Shown here: in pieces, positions 655 to 30,458 of the stretch | Position numbering within the stretch: the stretch's first letter is position 1 | Layout: the number at the start of each line of letters is the position of its first letter | Source of the DNA: Candidatus Eubacterium faecigallinarum | Lineage (GTDB): Bacteria > Bacillota > Clostridia > Oscillospirales > Acutalibacteraceae | Reading direction: 5' to 3' | Length of the DNA stretch: 33,945 nt | Assembly (NCBI GenBank): GCA_019115455.1 | Contig: DXDN01000022.1 | Coordinates: forward strand, 1 to 33,945 | The notes under the pieces: generated by a model | Seen by the model: the letters and a program-made list of their open reading frames with translations, nothing else | What the model was told of the DNA's origin: nothing | Database searches by the model: none | Made by a program: the position numbers and the translations under genes

Positions 655-1503
655 ATGTACACAAAGCTGTCAATCCCGGAGCGGCTCAAAGACCTACGGG
701 TGGTGGACAAGCACCTGACGCTGGAACAGCTGGCAGCGCAGACCGGCCTGTCCAGATCGGCGCTGGGAAAATATGAAAGCGGTGATTATAAGGACATCAG
801 CCCGTTTGCGATTGCAACGCTGGCGGAATTTTACGACGTGTCCACCGACTATCTGATGGGGCTGTCCGAAAATAAAAATCACCCAAACGCAGAGCTTCAG
901 TCTCTGCGACTGAGTGACGATATGGTAGAACTTTTAAGCAGCGGTAGGATCAACAACCGGCTTCTCTGCGAACTGGCCATGCATCCGAACTTCCAGCGGC
1001 TAATGACCGATATGGAAATCTTCATTGACCGGATTGCCGATATGCGAGTGGAGCAGATGAACCTAATCCTTGAAGCCACCCGGCAGGCTGTCATCAGCAG
1101 CCATGCTCCGGGAGAGAATGACCTTTATATGAGGACGCTGGAACTGGGGCAGATACAGGAAAGCGACTTTTTCAGCCATGTCCTGCATGACGACCTGGAT
1201 AGCATTGTCCGGGATATACGGGAGGCGCATCTAAAGGACAAGACCACCGCCGACCCGCAGCCTACGCTGGAGGACGTCAAGAAAAAATTTGAACAGGCCG
1301 TCCAGCAAGGCAGCGATATAGAAATGATGATCCACGAATTCTGCGATAAGTTGCAGATACCCTTTGAGAAAATTTCCTCAGAGGATTTCTCAGCGTTCAT
1401 GCGGATACTGAGCCTATCCAAGATGCTCAAAAAACCCAACAATATGAGGGGGAGAGCTCGGCCGCAGATTCACCGTGAGATGAAAAAAAAGAAGAAGCGA
1501 TAA
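655..1503 (+). CDS. XRE-family helix-turn-helix regulator with long C-terminal domain
   Basis: The 282-residue protein opens with a Cro/CI-type DNA-binding domain (about residues 7-70). It contains LEQLAAQTGLSRSALGKYES as the helix-turn-helix and a typical end, FYDVSTDYLMGLSE. The remaining 200 residues are helical and unassigned, with a very basic tail (KKKKKR) coded by an A-rich run. The start follows GAGAGGGGG. It lies divergent from the partial gene at the left edge and convergent to the defence operon, from which a strong hairpin separates it. Small XRE regulators of this form are common on gut Firmicutes mobile elements and often control excision or transfer genes. What it controls here is not shown, but a dyad over its own promoter suggests autoregulation. 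Confidence 0.85.
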   Translation: MYTKLSIPERLKDLRVVDKHLTLEQLAAQTGLSRSALGKYESGDYKDISPFAIATLAEFYDVSTDYLMGLSENKNHPNAELQSLRLSDDMVELLSSGRINNRLLCELAMHPNFQRLMTDMEIFIDRIADMRVEQMNLILEATRQAVISSHAPGENDLYMRTLELGQIQESDFFSHVLHDDLDSIVRDIREAHLKDKTTADPQPTLEDVKKKFEQAVQQGSDIEMMIHEFCDKLQIPFEKISSEDFSAFMRILSLSKMLKKPNNMRGRARPQIHREMKKKKKR

Positions 1504-1543
1504 TAGAACGGCCATCCGTTATTTACAACGGATGGCCGTTCTA
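1504..1543. terminator. Bidirectional terminator between convergent genes
   Basis: A perfect 17-bp stem (1504-1520 with 1527-1543) and a 6-nt loop lie immediately after the XRE stop codon and 8 nt beyond the end of the convergent Abi-alpha-type gene. The T-tract is weak on both sides, so the stem carries most of the signal. Confidence 0.8.
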
Positions 1544-1551
1544 TAAAAGTG

Positions 1552-2352
1552 TTATTCTCCAATATTATCAGGCACACAACTTCTCACAAAATCTTTTCCC
1601 AACAATGTTAGCTCTATTCGATAGGAATGGATTCTTAATGTAGAACCCTCTTCTAGCGTCTTTTCTATAGCGCGATAAAACCAATGATTTTTAAAGCTAT
1701 CATAATCGTAATTCAACTGAATAATTCTGTCATTTTTTATTAGCAACCCGAACCTAAGCAACATATCAACTGTTTTACTTAGTTCAAGATGTTCGGGATA
1801 TGTAAAGTCATTGGGTACTGTCATAAAGTCAAATAATAGATGGGGATATGGAGTTAATTTTCCGTTTGCATCCTGCCCCGTCAATTCAGCAATCGGAAAA
1901 GTGGTCTGCTTTTTAAATAGTAGTAAAAAACGGCCATCCAAAGGAGATAATTGCTTAATAATCTCAGGGAAAGATGGATGAACCGCACCTGATATTGAAC
2001 TATTACAAGAAGATGCAATTAATTCAGCAAACATTTCACGACAAGTAGTTTCTTCAATAAAAAACTTACTGGCTTCAATTGCTGGACCAACGATACGAAT
2101 AGGCGGTTCAATAAGATTTTGTTCTGGTATTTTTGTTATTTTTTGGACGATTTGCTTCTTATACTCTTCCAAATACACTGCTCGTTTTATTTGTTGCTTT
2201 TGGCCCCAATAGCCTAACCACCCCATAACACCATCGACAAGTAAGCCCATATTCTCACCAATACTTTTGGACGTCGGACGAACCAAGTCTTCTGTAACAT
2301 CCGTTGCTACCGTTCCGGCAGCTTTTGCTAATTCTTTTTTTATTTCATCCAT
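1552..2352 (-). CDS. DUF4393 / Abi-alpha family protein
   Basis: The 266-residue protein resembles the DUF4393 family (also named abortive infection alpha). It has an N-terminal helical segment (TVATDVTEDLVRPTSKSIGE, residues 14-33), a hydrophobic MGLLVDGVMGWLGYWG stretch, then the typical LIEPPIRIVGPAIEAS and MFAELIASSCN region. The C-terminal third (residues 165-260) looks like a winged-helix-type fold. It is the last gene of the hsd operon, 19 nt after hsdR, with AGGAG 8 nt before its ATG. Family members are reported in phage defence by abortive infection, but the biochemical activity is unknown to me. Its place at the end of a restriction operon suggests a back-up response. The gene is AT-rich compared with hsdR and hsdM. 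Confidence 0.75.
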   Translation of the reverse strand: MDEIKKELAKAAGTVATDVTEDLVRPTSKSIGENMGLLVDGVMGWLGYWGQKQQIKRAVYLEEYKKQIVQKITKIPEQNLIEPPIRIVGPAIEASKFFIEETTCREMFAELIASSCNSSISGAVHPSFPEIIKQLSPLDGRFLLLFKKQTTFPIAELTGQDANGKLTPYPHLLFDFMTVPNDFTYPEHLELSKTVDMLLRFGLLIKNDRIIQLNYDYDSFKNHWFYRAIEKTLEEGSTLRIHSYRIELTLLGKDFVRSCVPDNIGE

Positions 2353-2371
2353 ATATCATGCTCCTAAATAT

Positions 2372-5300
2372 TTATCCCGCATACTTCTTGAAGTTTTCAG
2401 CCTGCTCCAGAACCTCTTTATATACATCATCAATCGTGACTGGAGGATAATCGAACTCATCCAACAGAAGAATTAAATCTACCTGAAGGGTGGCTTTGAT
2501 GTCCTCTCTTGTAGACCAGTCAGTGTATTTTGCCTTGTCATCCACAATTAGCTTGATACGCTTGGACAGCTCGATCATCTTATCGTCTGGATACTCAAAC
2601 TCATACTTCTTGGCTACAGCTTTAAGAATGTCATAGAAGGCTTTTTCCTCGTAGTCGATCCCCATCGCTTTGAAGGAGTCTTTTTCCAGTTTCAATTCTT
2701 CCAGCAATTTGGCAAGCTGTTCCGCCACATCATCAAGGACTTCGTTGGCGAAGGCCTCGTCCCGGCGACGGTTGTTGTATTCGTCTACCACCCGTTTCAG
2801 GCGCTCGGAAAACTCCATTCCCATAATGCGGTTGACCTTTTTGTACTCGTCGATAGCCTGGGACAGAAGCCGCTGCAATACCTTGATTTTGGTATTGGGT
2901 AATTGGATTGCATTGATTTTTTCAATATATTCATCGCTGAATATGTCCACCGAAATATGTTTACCGGTTTCAAACAGCTCCTCAATGCCGTCTGATTGAA
3001 TAGCTCCTTCCAGCAGTTCCCGCACACGGGCATTCATTTGAGAGATATCCGGGGCGTCGCCTTTGGTGAGTTTGAACAGGATAGACCGCACTGCACAGTA
3101 AAAGTGAATATAGTCTTTCTCCGTATCGGAGATGGCATCGCTGGAACCACACAAATTAAAGGCTTGCTTCATCCGTTTAACAGCAGCCATAAAGCGTCGT
3201 TCCAGTTCTTCGGTCAGTTGGACATATTCCACCGCACGATTTAGACAAGCCAGCTGTTCCTTAGGCGTACCATGAAAAAAATCGCTGCTGTTGAAATTAT
3301 GAAACATCTGTCCTAGCACTTCCAGCTGGTCTTTGACAATGGTAACAGATTGTTCCACGCCCTCAAACTCTTCGCTCTCAAAATTAGTGTACTTTTTCAA
3401 GGCGAGATTCATATTTTTCTTGATGCCGATGTAGTCAACGATTAGGCCCTTTTCCTTACCGGTGTACACACGATTGACACGGGAGATTGTCTGGATAAGG
3501 GTGTGCTGCTGAATAGGCTTGTCGATGTAAATGGTATCCAGCGCCGGTACATCAAATCCTGTCAGCCACATATCCACCACAATGGCAATTTTAAAGTTGG
3601 ATTTCACATTCTTAAATTGCCGGTCATATTCCTTGCGGTCATCCTTGGTCCCCAGCATTTCATAAAGAGCTGGCTCATCATCCTTGTTTCTGGTCATGAT
3701 GAGCTTAATTTTTTCGATAGGCTTCAGCTCTTTTTTCTCTTTGTCACTCAGTTCCACACCGTCCGGGCAGATTTTTTTCTCCGCCCATTCCGGCCGTAGC
3801 CCAACCACGATCTGGTAAAAATCATAGGCAATTTTGCGGTTGGAGCAGACAAACATAGCTTTCCCGGCAACAGTAGCTCCCTCGGAAACACGGGTCTCAT
3901 AGTGGCGGATGAAATCTTCGGCTACTGCGCGGAGCCTGTCCGGGTCACCGATGATAGCATCGATATGAGCCACCGCTTTCTGGCTTTCCTCAATCTGGTG
4001 CTCGTTTGCGCCTTCTACCGCACACTGGGCATAGTAATCCTCGATTTCCTTTACCTTGGCTTGGTCTAAAGTAACCTTGGCCGCCCGTCCGTCGTACACC
4101 AGATTGACAGTAATCCCGTCCTTGACGGATTCGGTCATGGTATAGGAATCTACCACAGGGCCGAATACCTCGATGGTACCGTCCACCGGCGTGCCAGTGA
4201 AACCAACATAAGTAGCATTGGGCAGGGAATCGTGGAGATATCTGGCAAAGCCGTATTTGCGTTCTACGCCATCCTCCGTCACTTTTACCTTCTGGTCAAG
4301 GTTGATCTGGCTGCGGTGGGCTTCGTCGGAAATGCAGATCACATTCGTTCGGTCAGTCAGCAGTTTCAGATCCTCGGTGAATTTCTGGATGGTGGTCAGG
4401 TACACACCGCCGCTGGTTCTGCCTTGCAACTCTTGCCGAAGAGCCTCACGGGAATCAATGCTTACCACCGTTTCATCACCAATGTACTTTTTGGAGGCGA
4501 TAAATTGTTTGGATAGCTGGTCGTCCAAATCGGTGCGGTCAGTGATGAGCAAGATGGTGGGACTGTGAAAATAGGGGCTTTTCATCAGCATCCGAGAAAG
4601 GAACAGCATGGTATAGCTTTTGCCGCAGCCAGTAGCACCAAAGTAAGTGCCGCCTTTTCCATCGCCCTCCGGCTTCAAGTGCTTCTTGATGTTTGCAAAT
4701 AGCTTGGTTGCCGCAAAATATTGCGGATACCGGCACACAATTTTTGTGTCCCTGTCGGAGCTGTCCGGAAAATAGATAAAATCCTTGATGACAGCCAGCA
4801 GCCGCTCTTTGCGGAAAAGGCCGCTCACCATAGTTACAAGAGAGCTGATGCCATCCAGCTCCTTGTCATCGGCCTCGATTTTGCGCCAGGCATAAAAGAA
4901 GTCGTAAGGAGCAAAGAAGGAGCCATATTTATTGTTTGCACCGTCGCTGATGACCAGGAATGCATTGTACTTGAACAGTTCGGGAATGTCCCGACGATAG
5001 CGCACGGTGAGTTGGGTGTAGGCGTCCATGATAGTAGTGTTTTCCTTGACAGCACTCTTGAACTCCAGCACCACCACCGGAATTCCGTTGAGAAAGACAA
5101 TACCGTCCGGGATACGAAGCTGACCGCCCACACCCTCAATCTCAAACTGGTTGACGATTTTGAAAACATTGTTTTCCGGATGGTCGTAATCCACCAGCTG
5201 GATGTACAAATCCTTTTGGGTACGGTCTTCCCGGTTAAGTATAAAGCCGTCGCAGAGCAACTTGCAGAATGCCTTGTTAGCTTCGTAGATAGTACCGGAA

Positions 5301-5521
5301 ATGGATTTTAACCGCAACAGGATACCGTCTACTTCTGTGGTGGTCAACCCGTCTTTGGCATAACGATTCAAAAGGTACTGCCGCAGATCGCCCGTGAGCA
5401 GAACTTCCGAACGCTCCCGGTGAAGCTGCTCGCCGTTCAAATAATGGTATCCTTCATCCTGAAACAATTCCATAATGGACATTTCCAGAGAATGTTCATT
5501 AAAGTTTGTCACTACTATCAC
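2372..5521 (-). CDS. hsdR: Type I restriction enzyme R subunit (HsdR)
   Basis: The 1,049-residue protein is the DNA-translocating and cutting subunit of a type I restriction complex (HsdR2M2S). The N-terminal nuclease has Asp139 and the pair Glu153/Lys155 in VVLEFKSA, the PD-(D/E)XK pattern. The SF2 motor follows, with Walker A GATGCGKS (295-302) and DEAH (399-402), then FTGTP and a second RecA lobe containing WLTGFDVPALDT and ISRVNR. The C-terminal helical region (about 800-1049) should contact HsdM. The start is a GTG at 5521 with AAGGA 6 nt upstream; a GTG at 5512 with GAAGG is nearly as good. It lies 22 nt after the DUF3800-like gene. Length and motifs are complete, so it looks functional. 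Confidence 0.97.
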   Translation of the reverse strand: MIVVTNFNEHSLEMSIMELFQDEGYHYLNGEQLHRERSEVLLTGDLRQYLLNRYAKDGLTTTEVDGILLRLKSISGTIYEANKAFCKLLCDGFILNREDRTQKDLYIQLVDYDHPENNVFKIVNQFEIEGVGGQLRIPDGIVFLNGIPVVVLEFKSAVKENTTIMDAYTQLTVRYRRDIPELFKYNAFLVISDGANNKYGSFFAPYDFFYAWRKIEADDKELDGISSLVTMVSGLFRKERLLAVIKDFIYFPDSSDRDTKIVCRYPQYFAATKLFANIKKHLKPEGDGKGGTYFGATGCGKSYTMLFLSRMLMKSPYFHSPTILLITDRTDLDDQLSKQFIASKKYIGDETVVSIDSREALRQELQGRTSGGVYLTTIQKFTEDLKLLTDRTNVICISDEAHRSQINLDQKVKVTEDGVERKYGFARYLHDSLPNATYVGFTGTPVDGTIEVFGPVVDSYTMTESVKDGITVNLVYDGRAAKVTLDQAKVKEIEDYYAQCAVEGANEHQIEESQKAVAHIDAIIGDPDRLRAVAEDFIRHYETRVSEGATVAGKAMFVCSNRKIAYDFYQIVVGLRPEWAEKKICPDGVELSDKEKKELKPIEKIKLIMTRNKDDEPALYEMLGTKDDRKEYDRQFKNVKSNFKIAIVVDMWLTGFDVPALDTIYIDKPIQQHTLIQTISRVNRVYTGKEKGLIVDYIGIKKNMNLALKKYTNFESEEFEGVEQSVTIVKDQLEVLGQMFHNFNSSDFFHGTPKEQLACLNRAVEYVQLTEELERRFMAAVKRMKQAFNLCGSSDAISDTEKDYIHFYCAVRSILFKLTKGDAPDISQMNARVRELLEGAIQSDGIEELFETGKHISVDIFSDEYIEKINAIQLPNTKIKVLQRLLSQAIDEYKKVNRIMGMEFSERLKRVVDEYNNRRRDEAFANEVLDDVAEQLAKLLEELKLEKDSFKAMGIDYEEKAFYDILKAVAKKYEFEYPDDKMIELSKRIKLIVDDKAKYTDWSTREDIKATLQVDLILLLDEFDYPPVTIDDVYKEVLEQAENFKKYAG

Positions 5522-5543
5522 CTTCTATCCTTAAAGATCAACC

Positions 5544-7049
5544 TCATAATATATCGGCATAGTATCTGCCATTTATCTTTGAAAAAGTAACTTGTGCAGG
5601 AAACAAGTTTTCTCCCATATTAGCTATTCCAATAACGGTGTATGCCCAATCACTCAATTCTTGAGGTAGTTTATAACATACAGGCTTTTCATCTTTTAAA
5701 ACTGTGATCAAAGGGAGTGCCATGTTGCTTATACCTACGGACAACACCATGGCCGTTTGGCTACCCTCATTTATTGGAAAAATCGGCTGTTTTTCAATAT
5801 CAAAAAATACTTTTGCGCCTCGCTTATTTATAAAAAAATCTTTATTTGTATCCATAATCGGCTCGATTGGCAATTTGTTTCTTCTTCTACCAAAATAGTC
5901 CTCCAATTGTTTGCAGGCAAAGCTATTAAAATATTCTCCTTGCATACTGAGACCTTCATCATGTATCTGCTTTACAGATTCAAAATGGTTCATAAAATTT
6001 AGCAGCGCAATAAATGTCACTAAATCATCCGAATAGATTCCTGCATACGACTTGTACCAAGCGTGATCCCATTCGCAGATTATCTTATACAACTTTTTGT
6101 AAAGTCCCAACTGGGCTTCATTCATTTGAAACCATCTGGCAACTAATACTTTTTTCTGCACACCTTCCTCCGGAGAATGATACCTCAGAGAATCGCACAA
6201 TGATTTTAGCAGCTTTGTCATAATTCCTGCCATCATATCCGCCATACGAACACCGCAACTGCATAAAGAATCTACTTCTGTGGTGTTTTGCAGTCCCATC
6301 AGATGAGCAGCCTGTAATGTTTTGCTGTCCTGTTCTGCATCTCCTTCTTTGTCAAGTGTTAAGAAATAGTCAGCAATTTTTTCTTCTTCCAAATACTTTC
6401 GGAACCCATCAAAAGGCATATCATAAACCCAGTCGAGCTTCGGTACTATAGAGACATTTTCTAAATAACTGAGAATTTCTGAAAAAGCTTGGCTTTCCGC
6501 CCTTTTCAGTTTAATATTTTCCTTGTTGCACTCAATTCGTTCTCGAAAAAAATCCTTCAAAACATCCACAAAAGATTCTGGAGAGTTAAAAAGACAGGTA
6601 ATTACTTTCTCGGGCTGATACACAACAAGCGCTTTGGTAATAGAGTACTTCATAGCATCCACATCGAAGAAAAAGTTGCTTTTATATTCGGCAAAAAGCT
6701 GCAAAACCAGATACTCTATCTTACTCGCAATAGAAAAATAGAAGTTAATTTCTTCATCAAAAATGGAAAGGAAATCATCTACAAATTGAACATTGGGTTT
6801 GGTCATAGAAGCAAAACCAAATTCAAGCTGATTTTTCTTCAGTGTTTTGCTCTTTAATTCTCCATTTTTATCTTTTCGTTCTGCATACTTAGCTTCAAAA
6901 GACTGATATTTTTCAAAAACAGCCCGTTCTTTTTGCTTTGGCCATCCCACAATTACAGATACAAAATTATCGTAGTAATTATCGGATTTTATGGTTTTAT
7001 CATTTATTTTTCTGCTATGCTCGGATTCATCATAATAAAAACGGTGCAT
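5544..7049 (-). CDS. DUF3800-like protein (predicted RNase H fold), embedded in hsd operon
   Basis: The 501-residue protein is not a component of standard type I systems. It begins MHRFYYDESEHS, with the Asp7-Glu8-Ser9 signature typical of the DUF3800 family. It has the matching late motif CGVRMADMMAGIM (residues 265-277, Asp271), equivalent to the family's S-x-G-x-Q-x-A-D-x-x-A-G. DUF3800 proteins are predicted to have an RNase H-like fold with carboxylate active sites, which suggests a nuclease, though activity is poorly documented. Between the motifs lies about 250 residues of helical sequence. After residue 290 comes a 210-residue extension I do not recognise. It sits 60 nt after the cyclase-like gene and 22 nt before hsdR, with a GGGGGA ribosome site. 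The gene is clearly AT-rich. Family assignment is by motif only. Confidence 0.65.
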   Translation of the reverse strand: MHRFYYDESEHSRKINDKTIKSDNYYDNFVSVIVGWPKQKERAVFEKYQSFEAKYAERKDKNGELKSKTLKKNQLEFGFASMTKPNVQFVDDFLSIFDEEINFYFSIASKIEYLVLQLFAEYKSNFFFDVDAMKYSITKALVVYQPEKVITCLFNSPESFVDVLKDFFRERIECNKENIKLKRAESQAFSEILSYLENVSIVPKLDWVYDMPFDGFRKYLEEEKIADYFLTLDKEGDAEQDSKTLQAAHLMGLQNTTEVDSLCSCGVRMADMMAGIMTKLLKSLCDSLRYHSPEEGVQKKVLVARWFQMNEAQLGLYKKLYKIICEWDHAWYKSYAGIYSDDLVTFIALLNFMNHFESVKQIHDEGLSMQGEYFNSFACKQLEDYFGRRRNKLPIEPIMDTNKDFFINKRGAKVFFDIEKQPIFPINEGSQTAMVLSVGISNMALPLITVLKDEKPVCYKLPQELSDWAYTVIGIANMGENLFPAQVTFSKINGRYYADIL

Positions 7050-7109
7050 TTCTTCTTCCCCCTTTTGCCAAGAGACGATCAGCCGATCACAATTAAATGA
7101 TTCTAACCC

Positions 7110-7922
7110 TTAATTATCAATAGGGTTGAATAGATGCTTTCGTATATATTTTAAAAACCGTGTTTGATAGTCATCAAGAACATCATGCTGAAAAGCGTTT
7201 CTGATAAATGTATCTAATGCCCGCCAATTATCAGATGGTTTACCGTCACAGACTAACTGAGATAGGTTTTGAAATACTTGATCAACCTTTTTATCGTTCT
7301 TTTCACGTTTCAATGCAAAATATAGTGCATTATAATAATGCGGAAGCCAGTTTGATTCACTAGCCAATCGCACAAATTGCTTGATGTTCTTCTCATCAAG
7401 AAGATAATCTACAGTAATATATCTCAATATGTAGTGTGTAGTTTTTTCTATTTTTTCATCGAGTATATCGAAGGTTCTATCACAATTTCTCAAATCGTTA
7501 TATACATCTTCAGAAAGGTTAATGCCGATTGTTTTAACAGAACTTTCCAACAGGTAGGCATCAACATAAGCTTGTCCAACAATCAATTTTTTCTGTAAAT
7601 TAGGAAGTTCTTTTGCGGGCATATCATCGAATTCGCCTTTCGCGATAGCACCTCTGATTAAAATACCATTCTGCGAAAACTCACACTTACATATGGTTTC
7701 AACCACATCTACAAGCGCAATAAGAGATGACTGCATAACATCGTTTGTACTTAAAATAATTGAATCACTTACGATGTATCCATTTATTTTTCCTAATTGC
7801 CATTGAAAAATAGAGTATACCGTTGATGAAAAATCTCCAATAAAGTCTTTAGCTTCATTTTGAGGAAGTTGCTTTAATTTGTTTTTAAATCCTAGAATAT
7901 CTAAAAAAGCCACATACTTCAT
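7110..7922 (-). CDS. Class III nucleotidyl cyclase-like protein, embedded in hsd operon
   Basis: The 270-residue protein has the motif order of a class III cyclase homology domain in its first 130 residues. AFLDILGF contains Asp8 (first metal aspartate). VSDSIIL contains Asp53 (the position of the GD hairpin). LIRGAIAKGEF (88-98) corresponds to the strand and Gly turn R-x-G-x-x-x-G. VGQAYVDAYLLE (115-126) corresponds to G-x-x-V-N-x-A-x-x-L-E. Both metal-binding aspartates are kept. The C-terminal 140 residues are helical and unassigned. Pycsar cyclases (PycC), which make cCMP or cUMP during phage infection, share this fold, but no known Pycsar effector is recognised beside it. It lies 24 nt after hsdS with GGGAG before the ATG. 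A cyclase fold is my reading; activity is unproven. Confidence 0.6.
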   Translation of the reverse strand: MKYVAFLDILGFKNKLKQLPQNEAKDFIGDFSSTVYSIFQWQLGKINGYIVSDSIILSTNDVMQSSLIALVDVVETICKCEFSQNGILIRGAIAKGEFDDMPAKELPNLQKKLIVGQAYVDAYLLESSVKTIGINLSEDVYNDLRNCDRTFDILDEKIEKTTHYILRYITVDYLLDEKNIKQFVRLASESNWLPHYYNALYFALKREKNDKKVDQVFQNLSQLVCDGKPSDNWRALDTFIRNAFQHDVLDDYQTRFLKYIRKHLFNPIDN

Positions 7923-7946
7923 ATGTAATCTCCCATAAGTTTTAGT

Positions 7947-9122
7947 TTAAAGGCTTGCTAACTGAGCCAAAACCGTGGATTGCAGTTCTTCAAGCAAAGC
8001 GATTTCCTTTGTATTTAAGATCATTTGCCGAATAATTGCAGCAAGATTCAATTTTTCAATGTATTTAGACGGAGGAACTACAATTTTTATACCGTCAATA
8101 AAGTTTTTGCTGAGATTATCCTGGGCTCCACCATTTGAAAGCCTGCTTATTGCCGTTTGGCTTTGAATTAGTGAGAAGTACAAGTATGCTGATTCTGCTT
8201 TTGTATGACATATCATGCCGCATATTGCTTGATTGGTAGTTGCCTCTATTGCAAGGTATCCAACTTCACCAGCTGTAACGCCGTACATCGCCATCAAAAC
8301 AGTATCCCTTGAAAGAAGCTTTGTAGAACTCTCACTCAAGCCTAATGGCGTGATGTGCTCATCGGTTTGCAAAGTGATATTGTTATGTACTTCTCCTGAT
8401 TTCACCCAAGGAATCGTTCCATTTTCCCAATATTCATTGTTCGTCCGGGATGGTGTCGAGCCAGATTTCGTGTCCTTGCAAAACTCAGACACGGTTTTAA
8501 TAGAAAAACCTTCTGGTAAGATCAATCGTTCCATTTCGGCATCCGTCAGATTTATCAGCACACCTCTGCCGATATTCTTTTGAATAGACGCTATCCCGAT
8601 TGTCACTAAATTCTCATTGATGTTCCGCTTGAGTGCAATCCGGTCGGTAATGGTTTGATATGCCTTAACAATACTGCGCTGCTTTTCGATGGGGGGAACC
8701 GGCAGCTCTACTTTGCACATTTCATCCCAATCCATCACTTCACGAACACTGCCATGAGATTTGAATCTGGCATAGCGGTCAAATTCCGGCCTCTTAAACC
8801 ACATCATGAGATATTCCGGCATAAGCTGGTTTTCATCTATGACTTCAAAAACTGTATAGACATTGCTTACCAAGCCTTCTTCATAGTCTTCCAAAAGTGC
8901 AATTCCGATTTTATCTCCACGGCGTGAAGTATCTGGGATGTATGTAAACTGCCCCTTTTTTACAACCTTATATTTTGAAAAATCCGTTCCAACTGTATTG
9001 GCAATTGAGGGAATAAACTGTTTTTGAACGGATACACCCAGCAAGTTTTCTTCTTTTCCATCTACATTCCGAACATCAACTTGCCGTATATATTGCCCCA
9101 ATTGCTTATAATTTGATCTCAT
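7947..9122 (-). CDS. hsdS: Type I restriction specificity subunit (HsdS)
   Basis: The 391-residue protein sets the DNA target of the complex. It has two target-recognition domains. The first (about residues 1-165) ends in VELPVPPIEKQRSIVKAYQ and a conserved helix. The second (about 205-390) begins with FSIKTVSEFCKD, contains GSTPSRTNNEYW and IPWVKSGEV, and ends in a second helix, ALLEELQSTVLAQLASL. Each should read one half of a split recognition site. The ATG at 9122 overlaps the end of hsdM by 17 nt, which implies translational coupling. No second hsdS copy, truncated half-gene or inverted repeat was seen nearby, so phase-variable shuffling is not indicated. Confidence 0.95.
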   Translation of the reverse strand: MRSNYKQLGQYIRQVDVRNVDGKEENLLGVSVQKQFIPSIANTVGTDFSKYKVVKKGQFTYIPDTSRRGDKIGIALLEDYEEGLVSNVYTVFEVIDENQLMPEYLMMWFKRPEFDRYARFKSHGSVREVMDWDEMCKVELPVPPIEKQRSIVKAYQTITDRIALKRNINENLVTIGIASIQKNIGRGVLINLTDAEMERLILPEGFSIKTVSEFCKDTKSGSTPSRTNNEYWENGTIPWVKSGEVHNNITLQTDEHITPLGLSESSTKLLSRDTVLMAMYGVTAGEVGYLAIEATTNQAICGMICHTKAESAYLYFSLIQSQTAISRLSNGGAQDNLSKNFIDGIKIVVPPSKYIEKLNLAAIIRQMILNTKEIALLEELQSTVLAQLASL

Positions 9123-10680
9123 AACCCAGCTCCTTAAACACTGCCAGCAAATCTGCCTTTGACTTTTCTTCCTCTGCCAGTAGCTCTTTCAGCTCGGCCT
9201 GCAAGGTTTTCATTTTGGTATCAAAGTCGATGGCTTCATCCCGGTTGACAAACTCAATATACCGGCTGGGCACAAGTGTGAATCCCTTTTCCGCCACTTC
9301 CTCAAAACTGGCGCTGTAGCAGAACTCCGGAACATTATGATAGGTTTCTTCATAGCCTTCCTGCTGCCATGCGTGATAGACATCGGTCACCTTTGCCCGG
9401 TCTTCCTCAGTCAGCTCGATATACTTTTTCTCGTAGGGACTGCCCATCTGCCTCAGATCCATGAACAGGATTTCCCGCTCTCGGTTGCGGTAGCGCTTAA
9501 CCTCGCCGTTTTGCTCCACTACACGGGCCTTTTTGTTTTTGTTCAAAATCCAAAGAGTCACGCTGATGTCTGTGGTATAGAACAGGTTGCGGGGTAGAAT
9601 AATAATGGCTTCTACCAGATTATTTTCGATCAACTGCCGACGAATTTTTAACTCGGTGCCGTCATCTGATAAAGCGCCGTTGGCCAGTAGGAAACCGGCC
9701 ACGCCATTCTGGGACAGCTTGGAGACGATATTCAGAATCCAACCGTAGTTTGCATTGCTGGTGGGCGGCACTTCATAGCCATCCCAGCGGGGATCGTCCA
9801 CAAGCTCGTCGGCAGCCCTCCACTCCTTTTGGTTAAAAGGTGGGTTTGCCATGATATAGTCTGCTTTCAGGTCCTTATGCTGGTCGTTGGTGAAGGTGTT
9901 CGCCGCCATTTCGCCCAGGTTGGCGGAAATACCTCGGATAGCCAGATTCATCTTGCACAGCTTGTAGGTGGTATTGGTGTATTCCTGCCCGTAGATGGAC
10001 ACCTTCTTCTTGTTGCCGTGGTGTGCCTCCACAAACTTTATGGACTGCACAAACATACCCCCGGAGCCGCAGCAAGGGTCATACAGGATACCGTCATAAG
10101 GTTCAATCATCTCAGCAATCAGATTAACAATACACTTTGGAGTATAAAATTCGCCCTTACCCTTGCCTTCCGCCAACGCAAATTTGCTCAGAAAATATTC
10201 GTAAATCCGACCGATGATATCATTTTCTGCGTCACTGGTATTGATTTTGTCGATTTCGTCCAGCAACGATGCCAGCTTTGCCATGTCGATGTGGAGTCGT
10301 GAATAGTAGTTATCCGGTAAAGCTCCCTTCAAAGAGGGGTTGGCCTTTTCAATCGTATACAGCGCCGTGTCAATTTTCAGAGCAATATCATCCTGTTTGG
10401 CGTTCTCCATGATGTAGCTCCACCGGCTAATTTCAGGCAGAAAGAACACATTGTCTTTGGTATAGAAAGCGACGTTATTCAGGAACTTTTCGCCGTATTT
10501 TTCCGCAATCAATTTGCGTTGGGCCTCAAATTTGTCGCTTGCAAATTTTAAGAAGAAAAGGCTCAAAACGACGTGTTTATACTCCGCCGGTTCCACAGAA
10601 CCACGCAGTTTGTCTGCCGATTTCCACAACGCTTCCTCCATAGAAACTTCTTTTTTGGGCTTTGCCGTACCTCTGGCCAT
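9106..10680 (-). CDS. hsdM: Type I DNA methyltransferase subunit (HsdM)
   Basis: The 524-residue protein is the N6-adenine methylase of the type I complex. The N-terminal helical domain (residues 12-150) precedes the catalytic domain. That domain has the SAM-binding motif DPCCGSGGMF (201-210), preceded by the family signature GEFYTPKCIVNLIAEM (177-192), and the catalytic NPPF (279-282). A C-terminal helix (about 485-524) would bind HsdS. GGAGG lies 8 nt before the ATG. It is the first restriction gene of the operon, 51 nt after a small XRE regulator, so methylase would be made before HsdR. All key residues are present. Confidence 0.97.
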   Translation of the reverse strand: MARGTAKPKKEVSMEEALWKSADKLRGSVEPAEYKHVVLSLFFLKFASDKFEAQRKLIAEKYGEKFLNNVAFYTKDNVFFLPEISRWSYIMENAKQDDIALKIDTALYTIEKANPSLKGALPDNYYSRLHIDMAKLASLLDEIDKINTSDAENDIIGRIYEYFLSKFALAEGKGKGEFYTPKCIVNLIAEMIEPYDGILYDPCCGSGGMFVQSIKFVEAHHGNKKKVSIYGQEYTNTTYKLCKMNLAIRGISANLGEMAANTFTNDQHKDLKADYIMANPPFNQKEWRAADELVDDPRWDGYEVPPTSNANYGWILNIVSKLSQNGVAGFLLANGALSDDGTELKIRRQLIENNLVEAIIILPRNLFYTTDISVTLWILNKNKKARVVEQNGEVKRYRNREREILFMDLRQMGSPYEKKYIELTEEDRAKVTDVYHAWQQEGYEETYHNVPEFCYSASFEEVAEKGFTLVPSRYIEFVNRDEAIDFDTKMKTLQAELKELLAEEEKSKADLLAVFKELGYEIKL

Positions 10681-10731
10681 TTTATTTTCCTCCGATTTTC
10701 GGTAATTTATATTTTCGTATAAAGCAGCACT

Positions 10732-10944
10732 CTATTTCTGGCTATCATGTACCACTTCGCAAATATCTCCAATATCACAGTCGAGATACTCACAGATTCG
10801 CAACAATACAGAAAGGGCTACTTCATTGCCTTTGTTTAGTTTCGCCATGGTCCCGGTGGCCAGCTTCAGGTCCGCCCGGAACTTCATTTTGCTTATATCA
10901 CGCTCTAATAGCAGCATCCACAATTTTTTATAACTGATCCTCAT
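10732..10944 (-). CDS. Small XRE-type regulator heading the defence operon
   Basis: The 70-residue protein starts MRISYKKLWMLLLERDISKM and is a single helix-turn-helix domain. It contains LKLATGTMAKLNKGNEV as the recognition unit and ends ICEYLDCDIGDICEVV, the usual form of YozG-like small Cro/CI proteins. The longer open frame has 27 extra residues upstream, but AGGAG lies 11 nt before the ATG at 10944 and a promoter lies just upstream, so I prefer this start. It is the first gene of the hsd operon, 51 nt before hsdM. Such regulators often control restriction operons in the way C proteins do. That role is an inference from position. Confidence 0.85.
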   Translation of the reverse strand: MRISYKKLWMLLLERDISKMKFRADLKLATGTMAKLNKGNEVALSVLLRICEYLDCDIGDICEVVHDSQK

Positions 10945-10993
10945 ATTCAAATCTGCTCCTATTTCATAGTGTACATAGCAGGTAGCTATTCTA

Positions 10994-11022
10994 ATTTTAG
11001 TCGAAAAAGCATCTGCTTGCAA
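10994..11022 (-). promoter_or_regulatory. Promoter of the defence operon
   Basis: On the minus strand TTGCAA (11017-11022), a 17-nt spacer and TAAAAT (10994-10999) form a sigma-A-type promoter about 50 nt before the XRE start codon. No other good promoter was noticed between genes further down the operon, which fits one long transcript of seven genes. Confidence 0.55.
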
Positions 11023-11112
11023 CATGAATTTGCAATTTATTACATAATAATTTCAACTTCGTGCATTTTTTCACCGTGAATAAAAATATTTTATGTTATA
11101 AAACAGAAAACC

Positions 11113-11158
11113 AATAAAACAAGCAGGGACTACTCCCAAAAAAGCGATCCCTGCTTGT
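11113..11158 (-). terminator. Terminator of tnpV
   Basis: An 11-bp stem (11119-11129 with 11148-11158) is followed on the minus strand by TTTTATTGGTTTT. It lies 20 nt after the tnpV stop and insulates the defence operon from tnpV transcription. Confidence 0.8.
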
Positions 11159-11178
11159 CGGTTATTCCTAATAACGAT

Positions 11179-11562
11179 TTAGTGATAAATTATCTCGCCT
11201 CGAACAATTTCTTCTGCCCGGTTGCGGATGTTGTTCATGGTGCCCATCCACACCATCGGATCATGGGCTTTCAATTCTTCGGTAATGCTTTCCGCCGCTT
11301 TCATCTGATTGATGAGACAGTTCATCCGCTCTTGTGCTTGCTCATTCAGAACAGCCAGATATATCCAGAGTTTGCCGGACAAAATCAGTTCATTGTACAG
11401 GGCTGGATGATACTGCGCCAAATAGTCTTTGTGCATCCGCCCCAAAATCCCAATAGGGCGGGTTTCTTCCGGTAGCTGCAAGTCGGGAATGTAGTAGTCG
11501 CCAACCAACGTATACCGCAGGCCATTATGTTCATCGTAAATGTGATTTTTGAGTTCTTCCAT
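11179..11562 (-). CDS. tnpV: TnpV transposon-encoded protein
   Basis: The 127-residue protein matches the TnpV family found on Tn4451-like and related Clostridial transposable elements. It has a tyrosine-rich front (GDYYIPDLQLPEETRPIGIL, residues 21-40) followed by GRMHKDYLAQYHP and a helical C-terminal half with LNEQAQERMN. The function of TnpV is not established; it is usually found near element ends. GAGGAG lies 9 nt before the ATG. The gene lies about 130 nt inside the inferred right junction and may be read from the promoter of the interrupted host phosphatase gene, which points the same way. Confidence 0.85.
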   Translation of the reverse strand: MEELKNHIYDEHNGLRYTLVGDYYIPDLQLPEETRPIGILGRMHKDYLAQYHPALYNELILSGKLWIYLAVLNEQAQERMNCLINQMKAAESITEELKAHDPMVWMGTMNNIRNRAEEIVRGEIIYH

Positions 11563-21304: not shown

Positions 21305-21560
21305 TTGCACAGGAGCAAAAAATAAGCCCCTATACAGTAGTATTGTATAGGGACGTAATATCTACGTGGTACCACCCTACTTCAGCAGAAGAATCTGCCC
21401 TTTAGCATCAATCAATGCCTTTGCCTGTAACGCAGCAACACGGCTGTTCCTATTGATTTCTATTCAAAACAGCAACTCCGCAGAGAGCTATACACTTAAT
21501 AACCCGTATTGACTCACACCGACCGTCAACTCTCTTAAACTGAATTATAAAGTCTTTTTC
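21305..21560 (-). promoter_or_regulatory. T-box riboswitch, leucine type, upstream of leuA
   Basis: The minus strand carries the T-box core AGGGTGGTACCACG (21367-21380) and stem I elements AGAGAG and GGTGTGAGT (around 21512-21535). The UGGU within the core would pair with an ACCA tRNA end, as for leucine tRNA. CTC at 21485-21487 lies on the 3' side of stem I and is a plausible leucine specifier. A terminator stem (21328-21336 with 21344-21352) followed by TTATTTTTT ends the leader. Low charged tRNA-Leu should stabilise the antiterminator and allow leuAB transcription. The whole stretch 21283-21672 without a gene is this leader plus its promoter. Confidence 0.9.
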
Positions 21561-21602
21561 TGCTTCATAGTTTTTATTTGGGTACTATTAATTTGTAAGA
21601 AC

Positions 21603-30224: not shown

Positions 30225-30440
30225 AAAAAATAAAAAATTCACCCTGAAAAATCAGGGTGAATAAAATCCACGGTTCCACCTGAATTATACTGAAAAATCA
30301 GTATCACTCATTGCCTTTTAACGCAGGCAGCGTCCTGTCATTTCCTACAGAATCTCAGGGGTGGTAATTTGATTTTCGGCTGCGTGCTCACACCTGCCGC
30401 ACGCTCTCTGCAAGCTTAAAAAAGCAAATCTTGTCCCCGT
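30225..30440 (-). promoter_or_regulatory. T-box riboswitch, threonine type, upstream of thrS
   Basis: The minus strand carries the core AGGTGGAACCGTGG, stem I elements GCAGAGAGC and AGGTGTGAG, and ACC codons at 30360-30365 in the specifier position, fitting threonine. UGGA in the core pairs with a UCCA tRNA end. The terminator is a 10-bp stem (30238-30247 with 30252-30261) followed by TTTTTTATTTTTTT. The stretch 30209-30702 without a gene holds this leader, two divergent promoters and the rny leader. Confidence 0.92.
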
Positions 30441-30458
30441 CTGCAATTTATTACACTT

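What the first reader, a model, noticed from the sequence alone, without database searches (positions are those of the whole stretch)
5544..7922. Two non-restriction genes embedded between hsdS and hsdR: cyclase-like plus DUF3800-like pair
A normal type I operon is hsdM-hsdS-hsdR in some order. Here a cyclase-fold-like protein and a DUF3800-like protein sit inside it, with gaps of 24, 60 and 22 nt, all on one strand and apparently behind one promoter. Embedded genes in type I operons (PrrC, RloC) are known back-up defences triggered when the restriction complex is disturbed. A nucleotide signal made by one protein and a nuclease controlled by it would fit that logic, but this link is an inference; no such system is known to me.
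Basis: partly seen in the sequence, partly recalled or inferred. Interest (0 to 1): 0.82.

Follow-up and report, generated by a model that had tools for sequence, protein, structure and literature searches.

The report
Two defence-like genes inside restriction operon
A bacterial anti-virus DNA-cutting operon carries two extra, uncharacterised genes in a slot that related operons often fill with other genes, several of them defence genes; the two look like independent passengers, not a matched pair.

Summary
Between hsdS and hsdR lie a 270-aa gene (7110-7922) and a 501-aa gene (5544-7049), all on the minus strand, with gaps of 24, 60 and 22 nt. The first encodes a distant class III nucleotidyl-cyclase-fold protein with both metal-type Asp but without the usual Asn and Arg. 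The second is a DUF3800 protein with a weakly supported RNase H-like fold. The signalling-pair idea is not supported: the genes co-occur only here and in one 96%-identical contig (0 of 59 other cyclase-like loci, 1 of 44 DUF3800 loci). Each recurs alone, in type I operons and elsewhere. The embedded-defence idea fits better. In 15 related operons with both junctions visible, hsdS-hsdR holds extra genes in 13 and hsdM-hsdS in 1. Six of those 13 have a recognised domain there, such as RelA/SpoT, AbiJ, GmrSD, TIR or kinase. The closest operon with the slot in view has a RelA/SpoT gene in it. Best reading: two independently acquired single-gene modules in a known kind of cargo slot. Neither matches PADLOC-DB 2.0.0. 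Function is inferred, not shown.

The parts
10732..11025 (-). Cro/C1-type HTH protein (97 aa ORF, PF13443 HTH_26), likely operon regulator
   Evidence: Pfam 1.7e-15; homologues lie directly upstream of hsdM in L046, L161 and L164
9106..10680 (-). hsdM, type I DNA methyltransferase
   Evidence: PF02384 2.2e-100, PF12161 5.2e-21; PADLOC MTase_I
7947..9122 (-). hsdS, specificity subunit
   Evidence: PF01420 1.6e-25; PADLOC Specificity_I
7110..7922 (-). cyclase-like protein, 270 aa: class III nucleotidyl-cyclase fold, D8 and D53 kept, canonical Asn/Arg absent
   Evidence: PDB profile hits; AlphaFold and Foldseek; 26-row alignment
5544..7049 (-). DUF3800 protein, 501 aa: RNase H-like domain plus C-terminal part rich in beta strands (about 400-501)
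   Evidence: 24 of 27 family members match PF12686; AlphaFold pLDDT 84.8; Foldseek best hits RNase H2/HII, weak, E 0.03
2372..5521 (-). hsdR, type I restriction subunit
   Evidence: TIGR00348 9.2e-143; PF11867, PF04313
1552..2352 (-). Abi_alpha protein (PF14337; PADLOC PDC-S47), 19 nt after hsdR, probably same operon
   Evidence: Pfam 6.3e-42; PADLOC 1.9e-42

Best explanation
This is a type I restriction-modification operon whose hsdS-hsdR junction serves as a cargo slot. It holds two independently acquired single-gene modules, co-transcribed with hsd. The DUF3800 protein is probably an RNase H-fold nuclease that acts as a back-up effector, cutting nucleic acid when restriction is evaded or inhibited. 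The cyclase-like protein is a class III-cyclase-fold, metal-binding protein that either makes an unusual nucleotide product or senses nucleotides, and acts on its own. Shown: anatomy, fold family of the cyclase-like protein, DUF3800 kinship, independent recurrence, occupancy of the slot, different slot content in a relative. Inferred: co-transcription, nuclease activity, any cyclase activity, the anti-phage role and its trigger.
For: DUF3800 gene: 17 of 41 loci have an hsd gene within two genes; in 24 of 41 none is seen there, and some of these lie beside AbiEii or mobile-element genes. RM and other members interleave on the 33-row tree: 8 changes, shuffles 10.9 +/- 1.4, 12 of 300 at 8 or less. 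Cyclase-like gene: also in type I loci L050 (S-CYC-M, then a TIR gene), L072, L073 and viral contig L083, and in a BREX-type locus with a Gabija-like pair, L113. Within 10 kb of hsdM in 3 of 19 non-window genome loci, where 0.6% is expected (P 1.9e-4); within 5 kb in 2 of 19, 0.3% expected (P 1.7e-3). Slot: 13 of 15 S-R junctions hold cargo, 1 of 15 M-S. Cargo domains: RelA_SpoT, AbiJ_NTD4, KAP_NTPase, DUF4062, GmrSD_N, Pkinase, TIR_2/SEFIR; 3 of 10 cargo proteins match PADLOC candidates PDC-S32 or PDC-S33. The closest operon with the slot in view (L146, hsdR 87% identical over residues 4-809) aligns in hsdM, part of hsdS and most of hsdR but not across 5512-8606, and has RelA_SpoT there. Precedents: TgvAB (PMC11411939), DarTG2 between hsdS and hsdR (PMC12255303).
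Against: No activity is shown. The RNase H match is weak (no Foldseek hit at E<=0.001). Neither gene was found in any of the 20 hsdR-selected regions, so neither is common in the slot there. In 7 of 15 cargo proteins tested Pfam found nothing convincing. In many other loci of both families I recognised no defence neighbour. Metal-resistance P-type ATPase genes lie within three genes of the cyclase-like gene in L169, L175 and L052, and a related ATPase in L111, as many loci as hsdM. The 10-kb and 5-kb tests are post hoc, and several loci have short flanks. DUF3800 copies with the two hsdR types separate cleanly on the tree (1 change among 11 rows), which could mean a closer tie to the enzyme.
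Confidence: 0.6

Rival explanations
1. Signalling pair: the cyclase-like protein makes a nucleotide that switches the DUF3800 nuclease on or off, a Pycsar- or Panoptes-like system lodged in the restriction operon.
For: Adjacent, same strand, 60 nt apart; cyclase fold with both metal-type Asp; nuclease-like fold in the neighbour; the pair is kept in L010, 96% identical.
Against: 0 of 59 other cyclase-like loci have the DUF3800 gene; only L010 of 44 DUF3800 loci has the cyclase-like gene. Canonical Asn/Arg absent. No nucleotide-sensor domain recognised by Pfam in the DUF3800 protein.
Confidence: 0.12
2. The DUF3800 protein is an accessory subunit or modulator of the type I enzyme, not a separate defence.
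For: Directly upstream of hsdR in L019, L025, L026, L029, L032, L006 and the window; copies separate by hsdR type on the tree.
Against: In 24 of 41 loci no hsd gene is seen within two genes, though contig ends cut some views; 0 of 20 regions fetched by hsdR similarity contain it.
Confidence: 0.15
3. The genes are passengers or addiction-type genes with no role against phage; the slot simply tolerates insertions.
For: Many loci are on plasmids or among mobile-element genes; some DUF3800 copies are split (L038, L042, L046).
Against: Slot cargo often has known defence domains; acidic residues of active-site type are invariant in both families.
Confidence: 0.13

Closest known systems
TgvAB embedded in the Vibrio cholerae VPI-2 type I operon (PMC11411939, abstract and passages)
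   Same: Two non-restriction genes inside a type I operon; there shown to protect against phages
   Different: TgvA/B are DUF262/DUF1524 GmrSD-type proteins that need each other; here neither domain is present and the two genes recur apart
DarTG2 between hsdS and hsdR with RptR regulator (PMC12255303, abstract and passages)
   Same: Same slot, small regulator at the head of the operon; authors call the site a potential recombination hotspot
   Different: Cargo is a toxin-antitoxin pair; the regulator here matches a Cro/C1-type HTH model
DUF3800 proteins beside Cas12a2 and in V-A2/VI-F loci (PMC10910872, PMC12669027, passages)
   Same: DUF3800 domain described as RNase H fold, in a defence context
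   Different: Those are tied to CRISPR effectors, some with TPR; here a 501-aa version with a C-terminal beta-rich part, often in type I operons
Pycsar pyrimidine cyclases PycC (PMC11224242, passages)
   Same: Class III-type cyclase, two metal Asp, defence context
   Different: No PycTM/PycTIR partner here; the Asn/Arg positions of class III enzymes are not conserved
PADLOC candidates PDC-S32, PDC-S33, PDC-S47
   Same: PDC-S32 and PDC-S33 sit in the same slot of related operons; PDC-S47 is the Abi_alpha gene after hsdR here
   Different: Neither the cyclase-like nor the DUF3800 protein matches any PADLOC-DB 2.0.0 model

Membership tests
Type I restriction-modification operon | hsdM, hsdS, hsdR together on one strand | tested here: met
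Class III nucleotidyl cyclase | cyclase fold | tested here: met
   profile and predicted fold; residues 1-150 have block pLDDT 74-90 except one block of 52, the rest is poor
Class III nucleotidyl cyclase | two metal-binding Asp | tested here: met
   D8 and D53 in 26 of 26 rows, aligned to the cyclase motifs; their metal role is recalled and, for PycC, in PMC11224242
Class III nucleotidyl cyclase | transition-state Asn and Arg (recalled feature) | tested here: not met
   aligned positions hold V/I/T/L/Q (0 of 26 Asn) and mixed residues (2 of 26 Arg, not in the window copy)
Class III nucleotidyl cyclase | nucleotide cyclase activity | not testable with these tools
   needs enzyme assay
Pycsar | neighbouring receptor-effector, PycTM or PycTIR | tested here: not met
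   neighbour is a DUF3800 protein; no such domain by Pfam
Panoptes (mCpol) | 2TM-beta effector partner | tested here: not met
   no such neighbour recognised
DUF3800 (PF12686) | match to the Pfam model | tested here: met
   through relatives: 24 of 27 family members match at E<=1, best 2.7e-7; the window copy itself does not
RNase H fold nuclease | RNase H-like fold | tested here: inconclusive
   top 12 Foldseek hits are RNase H2/H3/HII but best E is 0.03
RNase H fold nuclease | nuclease activity | not testable with these tools
   invariant acidic D7, E8, E64, E112, D233, D271 could form a metal site; not assayed
PrrC/RloC anticodon nuclease | ABC-ATPase domain with nuclease | tested here: not met
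   no ATPase match in either protein
GmrSD (TgvAB, RloF) | DUF262/DUF1524 domains | tested here: not met
   no match in either protein

The most novel reading that the evidence does not exclude
The cyclase-like gene belongs to an unannotated, widespread, stand-alone family of class III-fold enzymes that uses two metal Asp, with other residues in place of Asn/Arg, to make a nucleotide signal. It has been plugged into at least three distinct type I enzyme lineages and a BREX-type locus. In four of these it lies near a different effector-like gene (DUF3800, TIR, HEPN-like, DUF559), so the restriction operon would host an interchangeable alarm.
Probability: 0.15. Interest if true: 0.8.

Novelty: new variant of a known kind. 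Interest (0 to 1): 0.5.

Why it matters
The hsdS-hsdR slot gives a simple way to look for single-gene defences: compare what occupies the same place in sister operons. It points to two untested families; for the cyclase-like one, none of 14 members scanned matches Pfam better than E 0.038. It also corrects a tempting error: adjacency inside an operon is not evidence of a functional pair.

Tried and rejected
Signalling pair: rejected as the leading reading because the genes do not co-occur elsewhere. DUF3800-associated RNA motifs: Rfam at gathering threshold on the window plus 6 loci, and at permissive threshold on window 1400-11300, gave none. Fixed effector partner of the cyclase-like gene: of 44 loci, 43 gave a hit, and their neighbours within three genes showed no recurrent recognised effector. 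The clusters seen in most loci were hsdM (4), P-type ATPases (4, opposite strand), then hsdS, recombinases, integrases, OLD-like/AAA ATPases and DUF305 (3 each). Solved relatives by sequence: none for either protein alone or for the 4-row cyclase profile; one chance-like hit for the DUF3800 profile. Phage records: no match for either protein. Viral contigs: none for the DUF3800 protein or the 4-row cyclase profile; the 14-row profile gave 26, of which 14 carry practically one protein. Promoter and terminator scans were uninformative. A first estimate that set 3 of 19 against the 5-kb baseline was wrong, because L072 lies 6.1 kb from hsdM; one search replaces it. Abi_alpha was not pursued beyond naming.

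Full report
Observation. The minus strand of the window carries a Cro/C1-type HTH gene, hsdM, hsdS, a 270-aa gene, a 501-aa gene, hsdR and an Abi_alpha gene in that order. The host assembly is 1.71 Mb in 27 contigs and its name was not shown.

What the 270-aa protein is. Alone it reaches no Pfam cut-off and matches nothing in NCBIfam, PADLOC or the PDB, only two PHROGs of unknown function. As a single query it was found in 3 of 291 genomes of the class and 2 of 398 of the phylum, own genome included. Profiles found it in 12 of 295 of the order and 6 of 299 of the phylum, own genome included. The 14-row profile matched only cyclases in the PDB (15 of 15 sequences at E<=10; guanylyl cyclase C 4.3e-4, adenylate cyclase 1yk9 1.5e-3). 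AlphaFold2 gave a fair N-terminal domain (residues 1-150, block pLDDT 74-90 except one block of 52) and a poor remainder (mean 68.6). All 50 listed Foldseek hits, of 103 at E<=0.001, are adenylate or guanylate cyclases. In 26 aligned members, L010 included, D8, G11, S52, D53, R90 and G91 are invariant. The position aligned to the class III Asn is never Asn, and that of the Arg is Arg in 2 of 26. The role of Asn and Arg is recalled, not from a call.

What the 501-aa protein is. It has no family match itself, but 24 of 27 family members match DUF3800 at E<=1. AlphaFold2 was good (pLDDT 84.8). Foldseek ranked RNase H2/H3/HII first but weakly (best E 0.03, none <=0.001). This agrees with passages in PMC10910872 and PMC12669027 that describe DUF3800 as an RNase H fold. 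Residues 404-501 also match a stand-alone hypothetical protein on two Bacillus plasmids (one viewed).

Do they form a pair? The DUF3800 model hits 0 of 59 cyclase-like loci; 14 of these (L084-L097) carry practically one protein. The cyclase model hits 1 of 44 DUF3800 loci, L010, which is 96.4% identical to window 5495-9357. The 44 contain repeats (L004/L056, L006/L007, L009/L027, L033/L034). Absence refers to the fetched flanks only, which are short in some loci. L010 lies in a contig binned as Opitutales, perhaps a binning error. So the pair looks like one allele.

Where the DUF3800 gene lives. I counted 41 loci: the window, all 37, and 3 of the 12 plasmid records (L005, L006, L008). L007, L009 and L004/L056 were left out as near-copies or distant; the other 8 plasmid records were not fetched for this count. 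In 17 of 41 an hsd gene lies within two genes: window, L010, L014, L019, L025, L026, L029, L031-L036, L044, L046, L005, L006. Several are not independent (window/L010, L033/L034, L014/L036/L044). In 24 of 41 none is seen there; contig ends cut some views, and L012 has hsdS- and hsdR-like genes about 6 kb upstream. Two Lactococcus plasmids viewed carry hsdS-DUF3800-hsdR with inverted hsdS fragments and an Xer gene. L017 has an AbiEii gene upstream (L043 has the same gene clusters); others sit near ParB (L013), TraG/VirB4-like (L018), UmuC-like (L020) or resolvase (L021) genes. On a 33-row tree the RM label changes 8 times (shuffles 10.9 +/- 1.4; 12 of 300 at 8 or less), so embedding is partly clustered yet repeated; the two hsdR types need 1 change among 11 rows. 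L017, L034, L038 and L042-L046 were not in the tree.

Where the cyclase-like gene lives. Type I loci: L050 (S-CYC-M, then a TIR_2 gene), L072 (M-S-DUF2971-R-HEPN-like-CYC; HEPN is below its cut-off), L073 (M-S-CYC-DUF559-R) and viral contig L083 (S-CYC-partial M). L113 has an Eco57I-type methylase, BrxL, the cyclase-like gene, then OLD-like ATPase and UvrD genes. The large R genes of L050, L072 and L073 were named by similarity, not Pfam; identities among R proteins indicate at least three lineages. Of 19 genome loci other than the window, 3 lie within 10 kb of hsdM (L050, L073, L072 at 6.1 kb) and 2 within 5 kb. Fifty-nine HsdM_N matches in 98 genomes (212 Mb; sum) make 0.6% and 0.3% expected; binomial P 1.9e-4 and 1.7e-3. 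The test is post hoc, the baseline is from the order only while the 19 loci span order, class and phylum, and several flanks are short. Of 22 plasmid records I viewed 12, and 2 more. By my reading the gene mostly stands alone. One adjoins dsr1 (L171), one lies near AbiEii and an AAA/UvrD pair (L174). L169 and L052 (alike) and L175 sit beside metal-resistance genes. In the neighbour clustering, P-type ATPases occur near it in as many loci (4) as hsdM.

The slot. A search with the window hsdR gave 25 of 197 genomes, own included. I fetched 20 regions covering 22 of its 30 listed places; one of the rest is the window and 7 were not fetched. Fifteen regions show both junctions: hsdS-hsdR holds one or more extra genes in 13 (not L153, L155); hsdM-hsdS holds one in 1 (L153). 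Of the other five, L152 and L154 have a gene before hsdR, L160 has none visible (hsdS on the opposite strand), and L147 and L151 show hsdR only (junctions read by eye from the ORF table, hsdS fragments and Xer genes not counted as cargo). Neither of the two genes studied here occurs in the 20. Pfam on 15 cargo proteins from these regions found RelA_SpoT, AbiJ_NTD4 (2; one just under its cut-off), KAP_NTPase, DUF4062, GmrSD_N, Pkinase and TIR_2/SEFIR, and nothing convincing in 7. Four further cargo genes (in L156, L158, L162, L164) were not tested. Six of the 13 occupied junctions hold a recognised domain. PADLOC matched 3 of 10 cargo proteins tested (PDC-S32 twice, PDC-S33). L014 has a DUF6602 gene between the DUF3800 gene and hsdR. 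L146 shows different content in the same place: DNA identity of about 77-82% in hsdM, part of hsdS and most of hsdR, none found across 5512-8606, which includes the 3' half of hsdS.

Mechanism. Best supported: the operon supplies expression, and the slot is refilled by recombination between hsdS and hsdR. In TgvAB the embedded genes protect without HsdR's restriction activity, though alone they protect less than the full cluster (PMC11411939, abstract and passages). In PMC12255303 DarTG2 occupies the same slot and the authors suggest a hotspot (abstract and passages). PrrC-type silencing by the restriction enzyme (PMC2610378, start of abstract in a search listing) is a possible trigger logic, but nothing here tests it.

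Literature and novelty. Searches for DUF3800 with type I restriction, and for nucleotide cyclase with restriction-modification, Pycsar and embedded, returned 0 papers in the held library. A 2024 preprint on embedded defences by Payne and colleagues was seen only in citations and reference lists and may list these families. PMC11224242, PMC12657230 and PMC11701678 were seen as passages. I rate this a new variant of a known kind: embedding is known, and I found no characterisation of these occupants in those searches.

Noticed in passing
window 1552-2352: Abi_alpha gene (PADLOC PDC-S47) directly downstream of hsdR, a third likely defence cargo of the operon.
   Followed up: partly
window 10732-11025: Small Cro/C1-type HTH gene ahead of hsdM; homologues directly precede hsdM in L046, L161 and L164, so it may be a recurrent type I operon regulator.
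   Followed up: partly
window 21346-21577 and 30250-30452 (minus): Two T-box leaders (Rfam RF00230), unrelated to the finding.
   Followed up: no
L050 6656-11276: hsdS-CYC-hsdM with 4- and 11-nt overlaps, followed by a TIR_2 protein with an N-terminal part without Pfam match: a better place than the window to look for a cyclase-effector pair.
   Followed up: partly
L113 358-14039: Eco57I-type methylase, BrxL, the cyclase-like gene, then OLD-like ATPase and UvrD helicase (Gabija-like, named from recall).
   Followed up: partly
L169, L175, L052: Cyclase-like gene beside heavy-metal P-type ATPase genes on plasmids of Acinetobacter and Hymenobacter; unexplained.
   Followed up: no
L006, L019, L033, L046, L153, L159: hsdS fragments on both strands with an Xer-type recombinase: probably invertible specificity in operons of the same kind.
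   Followed up: no
L010: Near-copy of the window operon in a contig binned as Opitutales; binning error or transfer.
   Followed up: no
L178 4995-5321: Stand-alone Bacillus plasmid protein matching only the C-terminal part (404-501) of the DUF3800 protein: that part may be a separate domain.
   Followed up: no
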